Below, in pieces: positions 22,087-27,838 of a DNA stretch of 64,000 nucleotides. Below the pieces are notes generated by a model, which was given only the letters and a program-made list of their open reading frames with translations, had not been told where the DNA came from and did no database searches. Position numbers and translations under genes: made by a program. Each line of letters opens with the position of its first letter. Position 1 is the stretch's first letter. Origin of the DNA: Micromonospora costi (GTDB lineage: Bacteria; Actinomycetota; Actinomycetes; Mycobacteriales; Micromonosporaceae); the NCBI RefSeq assembly GCF_003626655.1, contig NZ_RBAN01000002.1, positions 372,001 through 436,000 on the forward strand, given 5' to 3'.

Positions 22087-23433
22087 TCAGCCGGCGGTCT
22101 CGGCGACGGCCTGCGCGAACACCTCGGAGCGGTGCTCCCAGTTGCGGAACCGGCCGTAGCTCGGCGCGGCCGGCGACAGGAGCACCACCCCGCCGGCCGG
22201 GGTGACCTCGCGGGCCAGCCGGACGGCGTCGACCAACTCGTCGACCACCTCGGTACGCACCTTCGGCAGCCCGGCGAGCGCCTCGATGATCCGCCGTCCG
22301 CTGTCCGGGATACCGATGACGGTGATCTCCCGCTCGGCCAGGTGGTCGCGCAGCGGGGTGTAGTCCAGCCCCCGGTCGGTGCCGCCCACGATGACGGTCA
22401 GCGGCCGCCCCTCGTACGCGTCGATGGCGTGCATGGCGGCGTACGGGCTGGTGGCGAGCGTGTCGTCGACGAACGTGAGCCCGGACGGGTCGGCGATCTC
22501 GGTGAGCCGGTGGGCCAGCCCCTGGAAACCGGCCACCGCGACGGCGAGCGTGTCCCGTCGGGCCACCACGTCGACGTCGAGCGCGTCGAGCACGGCCAGC
22601 GCCACGCACAGGTTGCCCTCGTTGTGCCGGCCGACGAGCGGCAGCACGGCGCGCGGGAACAGCGGCTGGTCACCGAGGTGGAACCAGGGCGCGCCGTCCG
22701 GGCCGGAGGCCACGTGCACGCTGTCCGGCAGGCCGGCACGCACCGCCGCCCGGTCGCCCAGTTCGAGGGCCAACCGCGGGTCGTGGCCGTTGACCACGAC
22801 GGTGCGCGGCCCGTACGCCAGCAGGTTCAGCTTGTCCCGGTAGTACTGCGCCTCGCCGCCGTGCGCGTCGAGGTGCTCCGGGAAGAGCGCGGTGACCACG
22901 GCGACGCGGGGCGAGTCGGTCAGGTCGCTGCACTGGTAGCTGGAGAGTTCGAGCACGTACAGCTCGGCCTCGGGCAGGTCCAGCAGCGGCACCCCGATGT
23001 TGCCGCCGAAGACGTTGGGCCGGTCCACCGCGTTCAGCAGGTGGCTGACGAGGCTCGACGTGGTGCTCTTGCCCTTGCTGCCGGTGACCCCCACCGTACG
23101 GTCGGCGTGGTCGGCCATCCAGAGCGCGGTGCCCTGGGTGACGGTGACCCCCCGGCGACGCAGCTCCACCAGCCACGGGTGCGTCTGCGGCACCCCGGGG
23201 GAACGGACGACCACGTCGGCGGCGGCCAGCCGGTCGAAACCCTCCTCGCCGGTGACCAGCGGCGCCGCCTCCGCGAGCGGCCCGTCCCAGGGCAGCGAGA
23301 GGAAGTTCGCGCTGTCGTCGACGGCGACCAGCCCGGCCGGGCCGTGCGCGGCGATGGCTGTCACAGCCGCCCGGCCCTCCCGACCGGTCCCCCAGACGGC
23401 GACGTTACGTCCGCGCAGGTCAGACAGGCGCAC
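22087..23433 (-). CDS. murD2: MurD2-type UDP-MurNAc-L-Ala-L-glutamate ligase
   Basis: Mur ligase of 448 residues. The Rossmann start is VAVWGTGREGRAA, the ATP P-loop is GVTGSKGKSTTSS (residues 115-127), the Mg/UDP region is YVLELSSYQCSDL and FPEHLDAHG, and the C-terminal domain carries GGTDRGLDYTPL and LLSPAAPSYGRFRNWEHRSEVF. It is not in a division/cell-wall cluster; instead it is divergent from a MurL-type epimerase gene. In Xanthomonas the equivalent pair adds L-Glu (MurD2) and then epimerises it in place (MurL), replacing glutamate racemase plus ordinary MurD. GTG start with GGAGGA upstream. L-Glu specificity is inferred from the neighbour. Confidence 0.85.
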   Translation of the reverse strand: MRLSDLRGRNVAVWGTGREGRAAVTAIAAHGPAGLVAVDDSANFLSLPWDGPLAEAAPLVTGEEGFDRLAAADVVVRSPGVPQTHPWLVELRRRGVTVTQGTALWMADHADRTVGVTGSKGKSTTSSLVSHLLNAVDRPNVFGGNIGVPLLDLPEAELYVLELSSYQCSDLTDSPRVAVVTALFPEHLDAHGGEAQYYRDKLNLLAYGPRTVVVNGHDPRLALELGDRAAVRAGLPDSVHVASGPDGAPWFHLGDQPLFPRAVLPLVGRHNEGNLCVALAVLDALDVDVVARRDTLAVAVAGFQGLAHRLTEIADPSGLTFVDDTLATSPYAAMHAIDAYEGRPLTVIVGGTDRGLDYTPLRDHLAEREITVIGIPDSGRRIIEALAGLPKVRTEVVDELVDAVRLAREVTPAGGVVLLSPAAPSYGRFRNWEHRSEVFAQAVAETAG

Positions 23434-23526
23434 AGGTGATCTCCTCCGGGGCGGGACGGCGGTCGGCGGGCCGCGGGTGCGGCGGTCGGTCCGGCACAGC
23501 CGGACACGGCCGGACGAACCAGGGCC

Positions 23527-23532
23527 TAGTAT
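23527..23532 (+). promoter_or_regulatory. -10 box of the MurL-type gene
   Basis: TAGTAT followed by 5 nt and the GTG at 23538, predicting a leaderless mRNA and fixing the start. Confidence 0.55.
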
Positions 23533-23537
23533 GGCGT

Positions 23538-24890
23538 GTGCGCTACGAGCAGCTGCGGCGGATGGACGCCTTCACCTTCCCGTCCTACTCGATCGACGTC
23601 TCCACCGGCGAGGCGTTGTTCGACTACGCCCTGACCGGCCCCGCCGGGGAACAGCGGTTCACCGAGGTGGTCACGTTCCCGGTGCCTGAGGAGTCGCCGT
23701 CCGACGAGGAGGTCGCCGCCCTCGGCCGCGTCCTCGAACTGCTGCACGTCGTGGCCGGGGTCAGCTACTACAAGGCTGCCGCACCCGGCCGGCTGGTGCT
23801 GCCGGCGCCGCTCGGGCCGGCCGCCGCCGAGCTGGTCACCGCGATCTACACGAAGGGTCTCGGGGAGTACGCGTACCGCAACCAGCTCCCCCACGTACTC
23901 CAGCTCACGCCGGAGCTGCCGGACGGCTCGGTGAAGCCGCCCGCGCCGCTGGACAACTCCGACCGCCGGCCGCTCTCGGCCGTGGGCGGCGGCAAGGACT
24001 CGATCGTCACGCTGGAGGCCCTGCGCCGGGCCGGCTTCGACCCGGTGCCGTTCTCGGTCAACCCGAACCACGTGATCGTCTCCGTGAACGAGGCGTCCGG
24101 GCTCACGCCGCTGGCCGCCCGCCGCCGCATCGACCCGGTGCTGTTCGACCTGAACGCCGCGGGCGCCCGCAACGGGCACATCCCGGTCACCGCGATCAAC
24201 TCCCTGATCGCCGTGGCCACCTCCGTACTGCACGGGCTCGGGCCGGTGGTGATGTCCAACGAGCGCTCCGCGTCCGACCCGAACCTGATCTGGGACGGTC
24301 ACGAGATCAACCACCAGTGGTCCAAGGGCGTCGAGGCGGAGGGTCTGCTGCGCGCCGCCCTCACCGAGCACGCCGGGCTCGCCGAGCCGTACTTCTCCCT
24401 GCTGCGGCCGCTGTCGGAGCTGCACATCGCCCGGCTCTTCGCCGGGATCGACCGCTACGACGACGTCGTGACCAGCTGCAACGCCGCGTTCAAGCTGCGC
24501 GATCCGAGTGAACGCTGGTGCCGCGACTGCCCGAAGTGCCGGTTCGTCTTCCTGGCCCTGGCGCCGTTCATGTCCCGGGAGCGGATCACCCACATCTTCG
24601 GCGGCGATCTGCTCGCCGACGAGAGCCAGATCCCCGGCTACCGCGAACTGCTCGGCGTGGACGGGCACAAGCCGTTCGAGTGCGTCGGCGAGGTCGAGGA
24701 GTCGGTGGTGGCGCTCAGCCTGCTCGCCGAGCAGGAGCAGTGGCGCGACGCGCCGGTCGTGCGCGCCCTCGTGGACGCCGTGCCCGAGACGGCCTGGTCG
24801 ACCGTGGCGACCTCCGACGTGTTCACTCCCGGCGGCGGCCCGAACCACGTACCCCCCGCGTACGCCAAGGTCCTGACAACCCTGACCTGA
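23538..24890 (+). CDS. murL: MurL-type UDP-MurNAc-L-Ala-L-Glu epimerase
   Basis: Protein of 450 residues. A PP-loop-like ATP-binding signature LSAVGGGKDSIVTLEALRRAGFD is at about 147-168, followed by NERSASDPNLIWDGHEINHQWSKGVEAEG and a cysteine pair region SERWCRDCPKCRFVFLALAPF. This is the architecture I know from MurL, which uses ATP to activate and invert the terminal glutamate of UDP-MurNAc-L-Ala-L-Glu. The divergent MurD2-type ligase supports the call. It acts in the cytoplasm in peptidoglycan precursor synthesis. The start is set by the -10 box 5 nt upstream; an in-frame ATG at 23562 is the alternative. It could otherwise be called a generic ATP-pyrophosphatase-like protein. Confidence 0.85.
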   Translation: MRYEQLRRMDAFTFPSYSIDVSTGEALFDYALTGPAGEQRFTEVVTFPVPEESPSDEEVAALGRVLELLHVVAGVSYYKAAAPGRLVLPAPLGPAAAELVTAIYTKGLGEYAYRNQLPHVLQLTPELPDGSVKPPAPLDNSDRRPLSAVGGGKDSIVTLEALRRAGFDPVPFSVNPNHVIVSVNEASGLTPLAARRRIDPVLFDLNAAGARNGHIPVTAINSLIAVATSVLHGLGPVVMSNERSASDPNLIWDGHEINHQWSKGVEAEGLLRAALTEHAGLAEPYFSLLRPLSELHIARLFAGIDRYDDVVTSCNAAFKLRDPSERWCRDCPKCRFVFLALAPFMSRERITHIFGGDLLADESQIPGYRELLGVDGHKPFECVGEVEESVVALSLLAEQEQWRDAPVVRALVDAVPETAWSTVATSDVFTPGGGPNHVPPAYAKVLTTLT

Positions 24891-25032: not shown

Positions 25033-26913
25033 TTACGGGGTGCGGATCGCGTCTAGCGCCAGCAGGGCCACGTGCAGGGAGAGGCAGGCGTCCACGGCGT
25101 CCAGGTCGGCGTCGAGGATCCGGCCGATGCGGGCCAGCCGCTCGTAGAAGGCCGGCCGGGACAGGTGCGCCGCGGCGGCCGCCGCCGACTTGTTCCGGCC
25201 CTGTTCGAGGTACGCCCGCAGCGTGTCGAGCAACTGCTCCCGGGGGTGCTGCGCGTCGTACGCGAGCAGCGCGCCGAGTTCCCGTTCGACGAAGGTCTGC
25301 ACCCGCGGCTCGTCGCGCAGCAGGTGCAGCAGACCGGCGAGCCCGACGTGCGGCAGCCGGAAGATCAGCAGGTCGCGCCGGTCGCGCCGGGCGGCGTCGG
25401 CGATCTGCCGGGCCTCGACGAGCGAACGGCGGGCCTCGCGCAGGCCGCTCACGCCCGAACCGGCCGCGATGATCACCGTTCCCGGCCGGCCGGCGCCCTG
25501 GGCCCGTCCGGCCTGCCGCGGTACGGAATCGTGTCGAGGCGGCGCGGGCAGGCGCGTCCCCGGGTCCGGCCGGCTCCCGTCGGCCCGGGCCGGTGCGTCG
25601 GGCCGGGACGTCGTGGGCGCGTCGAGACACGCGCGCCGCAGCGCGGTGGCGAACGCGGTGAGCGCCCGGTCCTCGGCGGCGGCGTCGGGCAGGGCCAGCA
25701 GCACACCGACCACGTGGTCGTCGACCGCGCTGGTCAACGCGACGAGCTTCGTCTCGCGCAGCGCCTGCCCGACCGCCTCGGCGAGGTCGCGCAACCGCGC
25801 GGGGCCGGTCGCCGGGCCCGACTCGCCCAGGTCGGCGGCCGGGCCGTTCTCGGCCGGGTCGTCGGCGCGGAAACGCACCATGACGCCGACCAGGTGCCGC
25901 CGGTCCAGCGTCACGCCGAGCGCCTTGGCCCGCAGTGCCACCTCGTCCACGGGCAGGGAGTGGTCGAGCAGCGCGGTGAGCAGGGTGCGGTGGATCTGCC
26001 GTTCCAGCCCCTCCGCGTCGCGGCGGATCAGCCGGCCCAACGCCAGGGTGGAGGCCGCCCGCTCGACCAGGATGGTCAGCCGGGTCGGCGGGACGCCCGG
26101 CGACGCGGGCGCCGGTTCGCCGGCCACCGGTCCGGGGTCGCCGTCCGGGCTGGCGGGCACTGGTCGAGGCCGCGCCGTGGCCAGCTCGCCGCCACCTGGC
26201 CAGCGCAGTAGCAACCGTCCCCAGTCCTGTCCGCGGGCGCCGACGGCGGTCACGAGCCAGCCGCTGTCCGCGTCGTACGCGGTGCGCCCCGCCGGTCGGA
26301 TCCGCCGCGAGTGCTGCTCCCAGCCGTCGAGCAGGATTTCGGCGCTCTCCCCCGCCGGGTCGTACGCGAGCACCTGCCGGGACAGGTTTTCCAGCACCAC
26401 GGGGCAGCCGGACAGTTCCGCGGCCTGCCGCACGACCTCGCCCGGCCCGGCGCCCTCCACGGACAGCTCGGTGAACCGCTGGTGGATCTCCTCGGTGGCC
26501 CGCAGCTCGGTGAGCTGGGCGTCCACGATCAGCGCGTGCACCGCCTCGGTGATCCGGACGAACGGGGTGGCCCGGCGCAGCTCGACGAGGGGCAGCCCGC
26601 GCCGTTCGGCGGCGGCGGCCATCACCCGGGGCACACCGCTGACGTACCGGCGGCCCAGCTCGACCACGAGGCCGGAAACACCCACGTCGGCCAGGTCGCC
26701 GATGAACGCCCGCAGCCCCGCGTCGTCGGCGGGCAACCCGATGCCGGTGGTGAGCACCAGTTCACCACCGCCGAGCAGGGACGCGATGTCCGGCACCTCG
26801 GCCACGTGCACCCACCGGACCGGCCGGTCGAGCCCGGCGTCACCGGCGACCAGGCGCGGGGCGCCGTGGCGGACCGGGTCCAGGGCGAGAACCTCACGGA
26901 CGGTAGGGAACAC
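25033..26913 (-). CDS. PucR-family transcriptional regulator
   Basis: Regulator of about 626 residues. The N-terminal PucR sensor region reads FPTVREVLALDPV with VRWVHVAEVPDIASLLGGGELVLTTG; the middle has a GGDEF-like/CdaR region; the C-terminal PucR helix-turn-helix reads LLDTLRAYLEQGRNKSAAAAAAHLSRPAFYERLARIGRIL. The family controls purine, pyrimidine, amino-acid and related degradation genes. The aminotransferase/mmsA operon 7 kb away is the kind of target often seen beside PucR, but nothing here proves a link. The GTG at 26913 lies 7 nt after a TAGCGT -10 box; an in-frame GTG at 26922 overlaps that box and is less likely. A disordered insertion of about 45 residues (DAPTTSRPDAPARADGSRPD and onward) interrupts the central part. 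Confidence 0.88.
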   Translation of the reverse strand: MFPTVREVLALDPVRHGAPRLVAGDAGLDRPVRWVHVAEVPDIASLLGGGELVLTTGIGLPADDAGLRAFIGDLADVGVSGLVVELGRRYVSGVPRVMAAAAERRGLPLVELRRATPFVRITEAVHALIVDAQLTELRATEEIHQRFTELSVEGAGPGEVVRQAAELSGCPVVLENLSRQVLAYDPAGESAEILLDGWEQHSRRIRPAGRTAYDADSGWLVTAVGARGQDWGRLLLRWPGGGELATARPRPVPASPDGDPGPVAGEPAPASPGVPPTRLTILVERAASTLALGRLIRRDAEGLERQIHRTLLTALLDHSLPVDEVALRAKALGVTLDRRHLVGVMVRFRADDPAENGPAADLGESGPATGPARLRDLAEAVGQALRETKLVALTSAVDDHVVGVLLALPDAAAEDRALTAFATALRRACLDAPTTSRPDAPARADGSRPDPGTRLPAPPRHDSVPRQAGRAQGAGRPGTVIIAAGSGVSGLREARRSLVEARQIADAARRDRRDLLIFRLPHVGLAGLLHLLRDEPRVQTFVERELGALLAYDAQHPREQLLDTLRAYLEQGRNKSAAAAAAHLSRPAFYERLARIGRILDADLDAVDACLSLHVALLALDAIRTP

Positions 26914-26920
26914 GGGCGAC

Positions 26921-26926
26921 ACGCTA
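26921..26926 (-). promoter_or_regulatory. -10 box of the PucR gene
   Basis: TAGCGT on the minus strand, 7 nt before the GTG at 26913; predicts a leaderless transcript. Confidence 0.5.
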
Positions 26927-27005: not shown

Positions 27006-27036
27006 CCTGGTGAGGGCGGGCGCCGCCCTCACCAGG
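27006..27036 (-). terminator. hairpin overlapping the 3' end of the SpoU methyltransferase gene
   Basis: Perfect 14-bp arms CCTGGTGAGGGCGG (27006-27019) and CCGCCCTCACCAGG (27023-27036) with a 3-nt loop. The second arm includes the stop codon of the methyltransferase gene, so the terminator is embedded in the coding end. Confidence 0.65.
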
Positions 27037-27838
27037 GGTCGTCGCGGCCCAGTTCCCAGCAGGCCACGGCGGTGGCGGCGGCCACGTTGAGTGAGTCCAC
27101 GCCGCGGCGCATCGGGATGACCACCCGTACGTCGGAGGCGTCCATGGCGGCGCGGGTCAACCCGGCCCCCTCCGCCCCGAGCAGCAGGGCGGCCCGCGCC
27201 CGCTGCGCCGCGTCCAGCCGCTGGATCGGGACCGCGTCGGGCGCCGGGGTCATGGCGAGCACGGTGAAGCCGGCCGCGCGGACCTCGGCCAGCCCGCCGG
27301 GCCAGGGTTCCAGCCGGGCGTACGGCACGGCGAAGACCTCACCCATGCTGACCCGGACGCTGCGCCGGTAGAGCGGGTCGGCGCAGGACGGCGAGAGCAG
27401 CACCGCGTCCACGCCGAGCGCGGCCACGGCGCGGAAGATCGCACCGAGGTTCGTGTGGTTGTTGACGTCCTCGAGGATCACGATCCGGCGCGCGGTGGCG
27501 AGCACCTCGGCCGCCGAGGGCAGCGGCCGGCGCCGGAATGACGCCAGCACGCCCCGGTGTACGTGGAAGCCGGTGGCCCGTTGCAGCACCTCCTGGCTCG
27601 CGGCGTAGACCGGCGCGTCGCCGGTGTCCAGGTCGGCGAGCTGGTCGACCCGCTTGGCGTCGACAAGGTACGAGCGCGCCGGGTAGCCGGCGCGCAGCGC
27701 CCGGCGCAGCACCAGCTCCCCTTCGGCGATGAACAGGCCGTGCGGGGGCTCCCAGCGGGTGCGCAGCTCGACGTCGGTGAGCGCGCGGTAGTCGGCGATC
27801 CGCTCGTCGTCGGGGTCGGTGATCTGGTGGACGTGCAC
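27029..27838 (-). CDS. SpoU/TrmH-family RNA 2'-O-methyltransferase
   Basis: SPOUT methyltransferase of 269 residues. The N-terminal RNA-binding part includes ELRTRWEPPHGLFIAEGELVLRRAL. Catalytic motif 1 is EDVNNHTNLGAIFRA (the NHxNxGxxxR arginine), motif 2 is LLLGAEGAGL, and motif 3 is IPMRRGVDSLNVAAATAVACWE. It uses S-adenosylmethionine bound in the C-terminal knot to methylate a ribose in rRNA or tRNA; the exact site cannot be told. GTG start, with a CAGAAT sequence 6 nt upstream that could be a leaderless -10. Confidence 0.9.
   Translation of the reverse strand: MHVHQITDPDDERIADYRALTDVELRTRWEPPHGLFIAEGELVLRRALRAGYPARSYLVDAKRVDQLADLDTGDAPVYAASQEVLQRATGFHVHRGVLASFRRRPLPSAAEVLATARRIVILEDVNNHTNLGAIFRAVAALGVDAVLLSPSCADPLYRRSVRVSMGEVFAVPYARLEPWPGGLAEVRAAGFTVLAMTPAPDAVPIQRLDAAQRARAALLLGAEGAGLTRAAMDASDVRVVIPMRRGVDSLNVAAATAVACWELGRDDPW

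What the first reader, a model, noticed from the sequence alone, without database searches (positions are those of the whole stretch)
22087..24890. Divergent MurD2/MurL-type pair: alternative route to D-glutamate in peptidoglycan
A Mur ligase with a full ATP P-loop lies outside any cell-wall cluster and is divergent from a protein with a GGGKDS PP-loop-like motif and a Cys-rich WCRDCPKC segment. This matches the pair known from Xanthomonas, where MurD2 adds L-Glu and MurL epimerises it on the nucleotide, removing the need for glutamate racemase. If this is the only MurD in the genome, the organism would depend on the pathway and be insensitive to racemase-directed inhibitors.
Basis: partly seen in the sequence, partly recalled or inferred. 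Interest (0 to 1): 0.75.

Follow-up and report, generated by a model that had tools for sequence, protein, structure and literature searches.

The report
Mirror-image glutamate made inside cell wall
This bacterium appears to have no enzyme for making free D-glutamate and instead builds its cell-wall unit with ordinary L-glutamate and flips it in place, a known but uncommon route; the flipping enzyme turns out to have the fold of a nucleobase-making enzyme (QueC) and an anti-virus enzyme (QatC), which suggests how it works.

Summary
The pair is MurD2 (22087-23433, -) and MurL (23538-24890, +). No glutamate racemase was found in the genome, its dcw cluster lacks murD, and this is the only MurD over the family cut-off. 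The ligase has both residues (Glu, Arg) whose exchange switches Xanthomonas MurD2 to D-Glu. In 121 genomes of the family (Micromonosporaceae), 62 have only MurL, 58 only MurI, none both, one (77% complete) neither. The pathway is published for Micromonospora, Actinoplanes, Verrucosispora and Salinispora, so this is a member of a known kind.

What I add: MurL, described in 2018 and 2021 as lacking known domains, is predicted (pLDDT 96) to be a QueC-superfamily ATP pyrophosphatase. Its nearest solved structure is QatC of the Qat anti-phage system (VIA Z 19.1 over 318 residues), then QueC (13.4) and Cap9 (13.2). It keeps a variant phosphate loop and the four zinc-site cysteines, though not the QueC substrate motifs. 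That fits the published ATP-to-AMP cost and an acyl-adenylate mechanism. Also seen: MurL-MurD2 fusion proteins in two genomes of another actinobacterial family, and Asp rather than the MurD2-type Glu in 58 of 97 MurDs from MurL-bearing genomes or contigs.

The parts
22087..23433 (-). [quoted passage not shown]
   Evidence: TIGR01087 285.8 bits; only match over cut-off in the genome; residues E186, L326, R354, P424, Y426 at the positions of E. coli D182, K319, K348, A414, L416
23538..24890 (+). [quoted passage not shown]
   Evidence: NF041275 E 4.2e-122, under its cut-off; AlphaFold2 model pLDDT 96.0, pTM 0.95; nearest solved folds QatC, QueC, Cap9
23080..23082 (-). codon of the first Gly of the MurD2 P-loop GSKGKST (residues 118-124)
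22876..22878 (-). MurD2 Glu186, position of X. oryzae MurD2 Glu197 / E. coli Asp182 (Glu chirality)
   Evidence: role of the position from PMC8788868
22372..22374 (-). MurD2 Arg354, position of X. oryzae MurD2 Arg358 / E. coli Lys348 (Glu chirality)
   Evidence: role of the position from PMC8788868
23985..24002 (+). MurL pyrophosphate loop GGGKDS (residues 150-155)
   Evidence: Gly150, Gly152, Asp154, Ser155 the same in 53 of 53 MurLs; Lys153 in 36 of 53
24474..24539 (+). MurL four-cysteine site from SCN to WCRDCPKC (Cys314, 328, 331, 334), equivalent of the QueC zinc site
   Evidence: all four Cys in 53 of 53; in register with the QueC cysteines in a weak profile alignment
24669..24689 (+). 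MurL motif KPFECVG with invariant further cysteine, Cys382
   Evidence: Cys382 in 53 of 53; a catalytic role is only proposed
23434..23537 (.). 104-bp divergent intergenic region
23527..23532 (+). TAGTAT box, likely -10 element of murL; 5 nt from the GTG, so a leaderless mRNA is likely
   Evidence: present in 12 of 12 sequences compared, 5 nt from the start in 9, 30-31 nt in 3; function inferred

Best explanation
The two genes are very probably this bacterium's only route to the D-glutamate of its peptidoglycan. [quoted passage not shown] This makes the alpha-proton acidic; [quoted passage not shown] The ATP cost makes the step one-way. The four-cysteine site holds a structural zinc as in QueC and QatC. 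Shown here: gene content, families, residues, predicted fold. Shown by others for X. oryzae, and said by the review to be confirmed in vitro for Micromonospora sp. and S. tropica: the two activities; for X. oryzae also ATP to AMP and one-way epimerisation. The adenylate was proposed by those authors. Inferred here: that the QueC-like site is where it forms, the zinc, and that the pair is essential in this strain.
For: No racemase match and one MurD over cut-off in a 99.9% complete genome. dcw without murD, while both MurI-type family genomes looked at have it between mraY and ftsW. MurL and MurI exclude each other in 121 family genomes: 62 / 58 / both 0 / neither 1. MurD scores do not overlap: 209.5-303.5 bits in 62 MurL genomes, 339.7-390.0 in 55 of the 58 MurI genomes, three with fragments or none left out. 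0 of 25 MurL genomes of other families in the phylum have MurI over cut-off. MurD within 3 kb of MurL in 40 of 62 family genomes, in the same locus in 24 of those 25 and in 74 of 80 contig loci; fused in two genomes. Arg at the chirality position in 27 of 27 MurDs read from 62 family MurL genomes, Lys in 5 canonical MurDs of the family and in E. coli. Fold: Foldseek E 7.3e-5 to QatC; VIA Z 19.1, 318 residues, 3.6 A; QueC 13.4, Cap9 13.2; the next row 9.7, another ATP pyrophosphatase-type enzyme. Biochemistry of orthologues: PMC5808125 (passages), PMC8788868.
Against: No assay was possible. NF041275 scores under its cut-off (407.8 of 700); so do 4 of 4 other MurLs scanned from outside Xanthomonadales, while 3 of 3 from inside pass. 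No member of a 53-row MurL alignment hits Pfam QueC, and YxQxHxxE, VPxRN and YPDC occur in 0 of 53. Profile comparison with QueC is weak (E 0.006, probability 6%). Five of the 62 MurL genomes have weak sub-cut-off matches to the racemase model (20-26 bits), as have 3 of the 25. In 22 of 62 genomes MurD2 and MurL are not neighbours. Two weak aminotransferase matches in the own genome are not excluded as D-Glu sources.
Confidence: 0.92

Rival explanations
1. The ligase is an ordinary D-Glu MurD and the partner is an unrelated QueC-like enzyme; D-Glu comes from another enzyme, for example a class-IV aminotransferase.
For: TIGR01087 (D-Glu ligase) is passed. Two class-IV-like frames match TIGR01121 weakly, 55 and 43.8 bits of a cut-off of 277.45. 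The MurL fold is QueC-like.
Against: Glu/Arg at the chirality positions and loss of the Lys319 equivalent; exclusion of MurI by MurL in 121 and absence of MurI in 25 further MurL genomes; linkage and fusion with MurD; X. vasicola MurD2 also passes TIGR01087, so passing it says nothing on chirality; the review reports orthologues confirmed in vitro.
Confidence: 0.03
2. MurL works through a covalent thioester: the adenylate is attacked by the invariant Cys382, and the thioester, not the adenylate, is epimerised before hydrolysis.
For: Cys382 is in 53 of 53 MurLs and is outside the four-cysteine site; the cofactor-independent racemase MurI uses cysteines (recalled).
Against: No coordinates were available to show that Cys382 lies near the loop; the published proposal needs no thioester.
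Confidence: 0.15
3. The QueC/QatC resemblance is only the common Rossmann-like ATP-pyrophosphatase core; MurL is no nearer to QatC than to other PP-loop enzymes.
For: 12% identity; Foldseek TM-scores to QatC only 0.42-0.43; no Pfam QueC hit; weak hhalign score.
Against: Z 19.1 and 318 aligned residues to QatC against 13.4 (199 residues) to QueC and 9.7 or less to the other rows; four cysteines kept; QatC too has extensions on both sides of the core (PMC13279940 section 7).
Confidence: 0.2

Closest known systems
MurD2/MurL pathway of Xanthomonas oryzae (XOO_1320/XOO_1319), with published orthologues in Micromonospora sp. and Salinispora tropica
   Same: Both genes, no MurI found, Glu and Arg at the two positions that set L-Glu specificity, invariant MurL motifs
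   Different: Genes divergent rather than in one operon; MurL scores 407.8 against an NF041275 cut-off of 700; aromatic residue Tyr for Phe435
QatC of the qatABCD anti-phage system (PDB 9y01, 9y02)
   Same: Nearest solved fold, Z 19.1 over 318 residues; core with extensions on both sides; four-cysteine site
   Different: 12% identity; no sequence-level match in the profile search of PDB sequences; different substrate, and the QatC reaction is unresolved according to its authors
QueC, 7-cyano-7-deazaguanine synthase (PF06508)
   Same: Rossmann-like core, GGxDS loop, C(x)nCxxCxxC site
   Different: No Pfam hit in 53 MurLs; SGGxDS is GGGxDS; YxQxHxxE, VPxRN, YPDC in 0 of 53; spacing n is 13-15 rather than 8
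Canonical MurD (TIGR01087)
   Same: Three-domain Mur ligase with P-loop, over the curated cut-off
   Different: Glu/Arg/Leu instead of Asp/Lys/Lys at positions 182/348/319 of E. coli; not in the dcw cluster

Membership tests
MurL (broad sense) | Full-length homology to Xanthomonas/Stenotrophomonas MurL | tested here: met
   NF041275 matched at residues 9-441, E 4.2e-122; aligned with L171 X. vasicola (39% identity to P0002) and L174 S. maltophilia (40%)
MurL_Xanthmoales (NF041275, equivalog) | Score over the curated cut-off of 700 bits | tested here: not met
   407.8 bits. 3 of 3 MurLs from Xanthomonadales pass and 5 of 5 scanned from elsewhere, this one included, fail, so the model looks clade-limited; it is not filed under it
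MurL (broad sense) | Partner MurD2 in the genome and no glutamate racemase | tested here: met
[quoted passage not shown]
   Needs an assay; the review says that it was shown for Micromonospora sp. and S. tropica orthologues
MurD2 | Glu and Arg at the positions of X. oryzae Glu197 and Arg358 | tested here: met
   E186 and R354
MurD2 | Uses L-Glu, not D-Glu | not testable with these tools
   Needs an assay
QueC family (PF06508) | Pfam PF06508 match | tested here: not met
   0 families for P0002 at E up to 1; QueC not among the 10 families hit by any of 53 MurLs
QueC family (PF06508) | SGGxDS phosphate loop | tested here: not met
   Variant GGGxDS in 52 of 53 MurLs, SGGxDS in 0 of 53
QueC family (PF06508) | C(x)8CxxCxxC zinc motif | tested here: not met
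   Variant with longer first gap, 13-15, in 53 of 53; Zn binding itself not testable. Family papers describe QatC with C(x)19CGxCxxRR
QueC superfamily by fold | Core superposes on QueC, QatC and Cap9 clearly above other folds | tested here: met
   VIA Z 19.1, 13.4, 13.2 against 9.7 and less; on a predicted model only
QatC | qatA, qatB, qatD neighbours and QatC motifs | not tested
   Not scanned for qat genes as such; the MurL alignment had no QatC match in PADLOC (1 unrelated weak hit in 53 members)

The most novel reading that the evidence does not exclude
MurL and the anti-phage enzyme QatC are one branch of the QueC superfamily that has moved from a deazaguanine carboxylate to carboxylates of peptides. 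Then QatC, which lacks the residues that read the deazaguanine and whose reaction is unresolved, may act like MurL: adenylate a peptide or amino-acid carboxylate in the QatB system and epimerise, cyclise or ligate it, rather than attach a deazaguanine. A cell-wall enzyme would be the model for a defence enzyme.
Probability: 0.12. Interest if true: 0.8.

Novelty: new member of a known kind. Interest (0 to 1): 0.5.

Why it matters
The route itself is known in this group, but how MurL works is open: both reviews say that it has no known domain and an unclear mechanism. A QueC-like fold gives it an ATP site, a zinc site and a testable adenylate chemistry, links a cell-wall step to QueC and to the Cap9/QatC defence enzymes, and gives a template for MurL inhibitors. 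The clean split of one bacterial family into MurL and MurI users (62 against 58, none both) makes the switch between the two routes a tractable evolutionary question, with both states in one genus. Practical: 117 of 121 family genomes have a match over TIGR01087, whose name says D-glutamate ligase, although in the MurL users it is likely an L-glutamate ligase.

Tried and rejected
Rejected: an ordinary D-Glu MurD beside an unrelated enzyme (chirality residues, exclusion of MurI). Rejected as a source of D-Glu on present evidence: aminotransferases; only two matches far under the TIGR01121 cut-off (that model passes its cut-off in only 1 of 14 control genomes, so it is a narrow test).

Led nowhere: Pfam, PHROGs and PADLOC gave no informative family for MurL. 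phmmer against the PDB gave nothing for MurL; the profile search gave 14 weak rows, the top two TtuA (E 0.048 and 0.049), others unrelated such as plant HMA domains. Two other long QueC-model matches looked at as possible QatC proteins were, by eye, an MnmA-like and a ThiI-like protein, so no QatC sequences were at hand for a direct profile test. Folding the N-terminal 142 residues alone, without an alignment, gave pLDDT 46.6 and was not searched, so whether the N-terminal part matches QatC was not tested apart. BFVD gave one match at E up to 0.001, without a name in the tables. A 2010 paper on aminoacyl-tRNA-synthetase-like enzymes came up by chance word matches (passages).

In print: papers on MurL with PP-loop, QueC, QatC or a structure were sought (PMC open-licence library only; one search listed 20 of 74 and 10 of 11). 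I found none that joins MurL with QueC or QatC; the two 2026 papers on the QueC family have no 'MurL' and no 'peptidoglycan' or 'epimerase' in the main text. Feng et al. 2017 and 2019 were not seen, only their account in the reviews.

Limits: handles of the genome search are unnamed; the own genus is not named here. Several of the 22 'unlinked' cases lie on different contigs of drafts, so some may be gaps. The QueC alignment A4 was chosen by its SGGxDS and Cys motifs, so its own counts of those are by construction. In one search the 97 MurDs leave out 11 of 80 contig loci (no MurD frame, or under 300 aa), count Longispora albida twice and include one unlinked MurD.
Full report
What is there. 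The window is G000:C2:372001-436000 of a 7.18-Mb genome, 99.9% complete. At 22087-23433 (-) lies a 448-aa Mur ligase and at 23538-24890 (+) a 450-aa protein, start codons 104 bp apart. Neighbours are not cell-wall genes: a PucR-type regulator (25033-26922) and a SpoU methylase (27029-27838); other neighbours scanned had no Pfam match. The ligase passes TIGR01087 murD (285.8 of 211.95 bits), the partner matches NF041275 MurL at E 4.2e-122 with 407.8 bits, cut-off 700.

Which organism. Longispora is in Micromonosporaceae. So the family is Micromonosporaceae; the genus is not named here.

Is it the only route? PF01177 gives no match in the genome, against 10 of 14 controls. TIGR00067 gives none. 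TIGR01121 D-amino-acid aminotransferase gives two weak matches, neither over cut-off. TIGR01087 gives six matches, one over cut-off, this gene. Three of the others lie at C2:672-680 kb, where Pfam shows a dcw cluster ftsI, murE, murF, mraY, ftsW, murG, murC without murD; mraY and ftsW frames abut. In the two MurI-type genomes of the family that I opened, G061 and G062, murD sits between mraY and ftsW. The pair is about 275 kb away. MurL has one match in the genome.

Exclusion in the family. Of 121 genomes of the family, 62 have MurL, 58 have MurI over cut-off, none both, one neither: G063, 77% complete, whose MurD fragment is of the canonical type. Five of the 62 have weak sub-cut-off matches to the racemase model (20-26 bits). 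Best MurD scores are 209.5-303.5 bits in the 62 and 339.7-390.0 in 55 of the 58; three of the 58 had only fragments or no full match and were left out. Eight of eight genomes of the own genus, this one included, have MurL. Genus g40 holds both types: G040 MurL, G062 MurI. MurD2 is within 3 kb of MurL in 40 of 62 (36 divergent, 4 on the same strand with MurL first) and elsewhere in 22; in 5 of these 22 that I opened, no dcw gene lies within about 8 kb on either side.

Beyond the family. A MurL profile matched 27 of 396 genomes of the phylum, 25 outside the genus shown. None of these 25 has MurI over cut-off; three have weak matches. MurD is in the same locus in 24 of 25, on the same strand after MurL; the 25th locus is a fragment. 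In a quick ML tree of 103 MurLs the 10 Micromonosporaceae rows form one clade (SH-aLRT 100) and the Xanthomonadales rows lie elsewhere, so one gain in the family is likely, though its source is not resolved.

The ligase. The 2021 review (PMC8788868, parts 1 and 2 of 3 read) says that Glu197 and Arg358 of X. oryzae MurD2 replace Asp182 and Lys348 of E. coli MurD, that E197D/R358K switches MurD2 to D-Glu, and that K319T lets E. coli MurD accept L-Glu. Here the residues are Glu186, Arg354 and Leu326, with Pro424 and Tyr426 for Pro433 and Phe435. Of 27 Micromonosporaceae MurDs from MurL genomes (of 62; those whose DNA I held), 27 have Arg and 26 Glu; five canonical MurDs of the family and E. coli have Asp and Lys. 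In a wider set of 97 MurDs of MurL-bearing genomes or contigs, Arg is at that position in 93 of 94 with a residue there, Lys319 is kept in 0 of 96, but position 182 is Asp in 58, Glu in 37 and Cys in 2. So the Glu is not a general mark of the pathway, unless the Asp enzymes differ in specificity.

The epimerase. Both reviews say that MurL has no known domain, needs ATP, forms AMP and works one way (PMC5808125 passages; PMC8788868). I aligned the window's MurL with 52 relatives and predicted its structure: pLDDT 96.0, pTM 0.95. Foldseek against the PDB ranks QatC first (9y01 E 7.3e-5; 9y02 1.4e-4), then QueC (3bl5 2.9e-3, 2pg3 5.5e-3), then TtuA, TrmU and other ATP pyrophosphatases. VIA-align gives QatC Z 19.1 over 318 residues at 3.6 A, QueC 13.4 over 199, Cap9 13.2 over 168, and 9.7 for the next, nitrile synthetase ArtA. 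The TM-score to QatC over the whole length is only 0.42-0.43, so domains may be set differently. The core spans about residues 142-342. GGGxDS is in 52 of 53 MurLs; the four cysteines in 53 of 53, with 13-15 residues in the first gap. A profile alignment with 22 QueC proteins is weak (E 0.006, probability 6%) but puts the loop and all four cysteines in register. The QueC substrate motifs YxQxHxxE, VPxRN and YPDC occur in 0 of 53 and no MurL hits Pfam QueC. So MurL is QueC-like by fold and by its ATP and zinc sites, not a member of PF06508 by sequence. QatC too has extensions before and after its core, a four-cysteine Zn site and loop serines needed for defence, lacks the deazaguanine-reading residues, and its reaction is unresolved (PMC13279940, abstract and sections 7, 8).

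How it works. Adenylation of the alpha-carboxylate was proposed by the discoverers; the fold supports it, because QueC-superfamily enzymes split ATP to AMP and PPi to activate carboxylates (QueC and Cap9 on 7-carboxy-7-deazaguanine; passages; the AMP chemistry in part recalled). In MurL the activated carboxylate would acidify the alpha-proton and end with water instead of an amine. Candidate residues invariant in 53 of 53 include His214, Glu242, His259, Lys263, Glu268, Arg290, Glu381, Cys382 and Glu388; I had no coordinates to place them.

Fusion. In G319, another actinobacterial family, one 861-aa frame carries MurL (NF041275 at 16-394) and MurD (TIGR01087 from 463; 185.5 bits, under its cut-off), with no MurI. 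G515 of the same family has the same architecture in an 877-aa frame, 47% identical; the third genome, G516, has no match. This is independent support for the partnership.

Verdict. Confirmed and supported; known pathway in a group where it was already reported. The new part is the predicted QueC/QatC fold of MurL, not found in print in the searches listed under Tried and rejected. Interest 0.5: modest for the finding as given, higher for the fold link, which makes the open question of the MurL mechanism directly testable.

Noticed in passing
L079:106-2688 (-) (G319) and G515:C54:1939-4509: MurL and MurD fused in one frame (861 and 877 aa) in two of three genomes of one actinobacterial family; no MurI in G319.
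   Followed up: yes
97 MurDs of MurL-bearing genomes or contigs, e.g. L163:4277-5566: The MurD2-type Glu (X. oryzae Glu197) is Asp in 58 and Cys in 2; Arg358 equivalent is kept in 93 of 94 and the E. coli Lys319 equivalent in 0 of 96.
   Followed up: partly
G040 (Longispora albida) and G062, both genus g40: One genus holds a MurL/MurD2 genome and a MurI genome with murD in the dcw cluster, a good place to study the switch.
   Followed up: partly
window 23527-23532: TAGTAT box 5 nt before the murL GTG, in the same place in 9 of 12 sequences compared: probably a leaderless murL mRNA.
   Followed up: partly
L134:1700-4338: A contig binned as Candidatus Saccharibacteria has MurD before MurL, the reverse order of the other same-strand loci that I listed; it may be mis-binned.
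   Followed up: no
L170:4191-5540: A proteobacterial MAG has a MurL-linked MurD with Cys and Val at the two chirality positions.
   Followed up: no
window 22087-23433: MurD2 passes NCBI's equivalog model for D-glutamate ligase, as does that of Xanthomonas vasicola, so automatic names are likely to give the wrong stereochemistry.
   Followed up: partly
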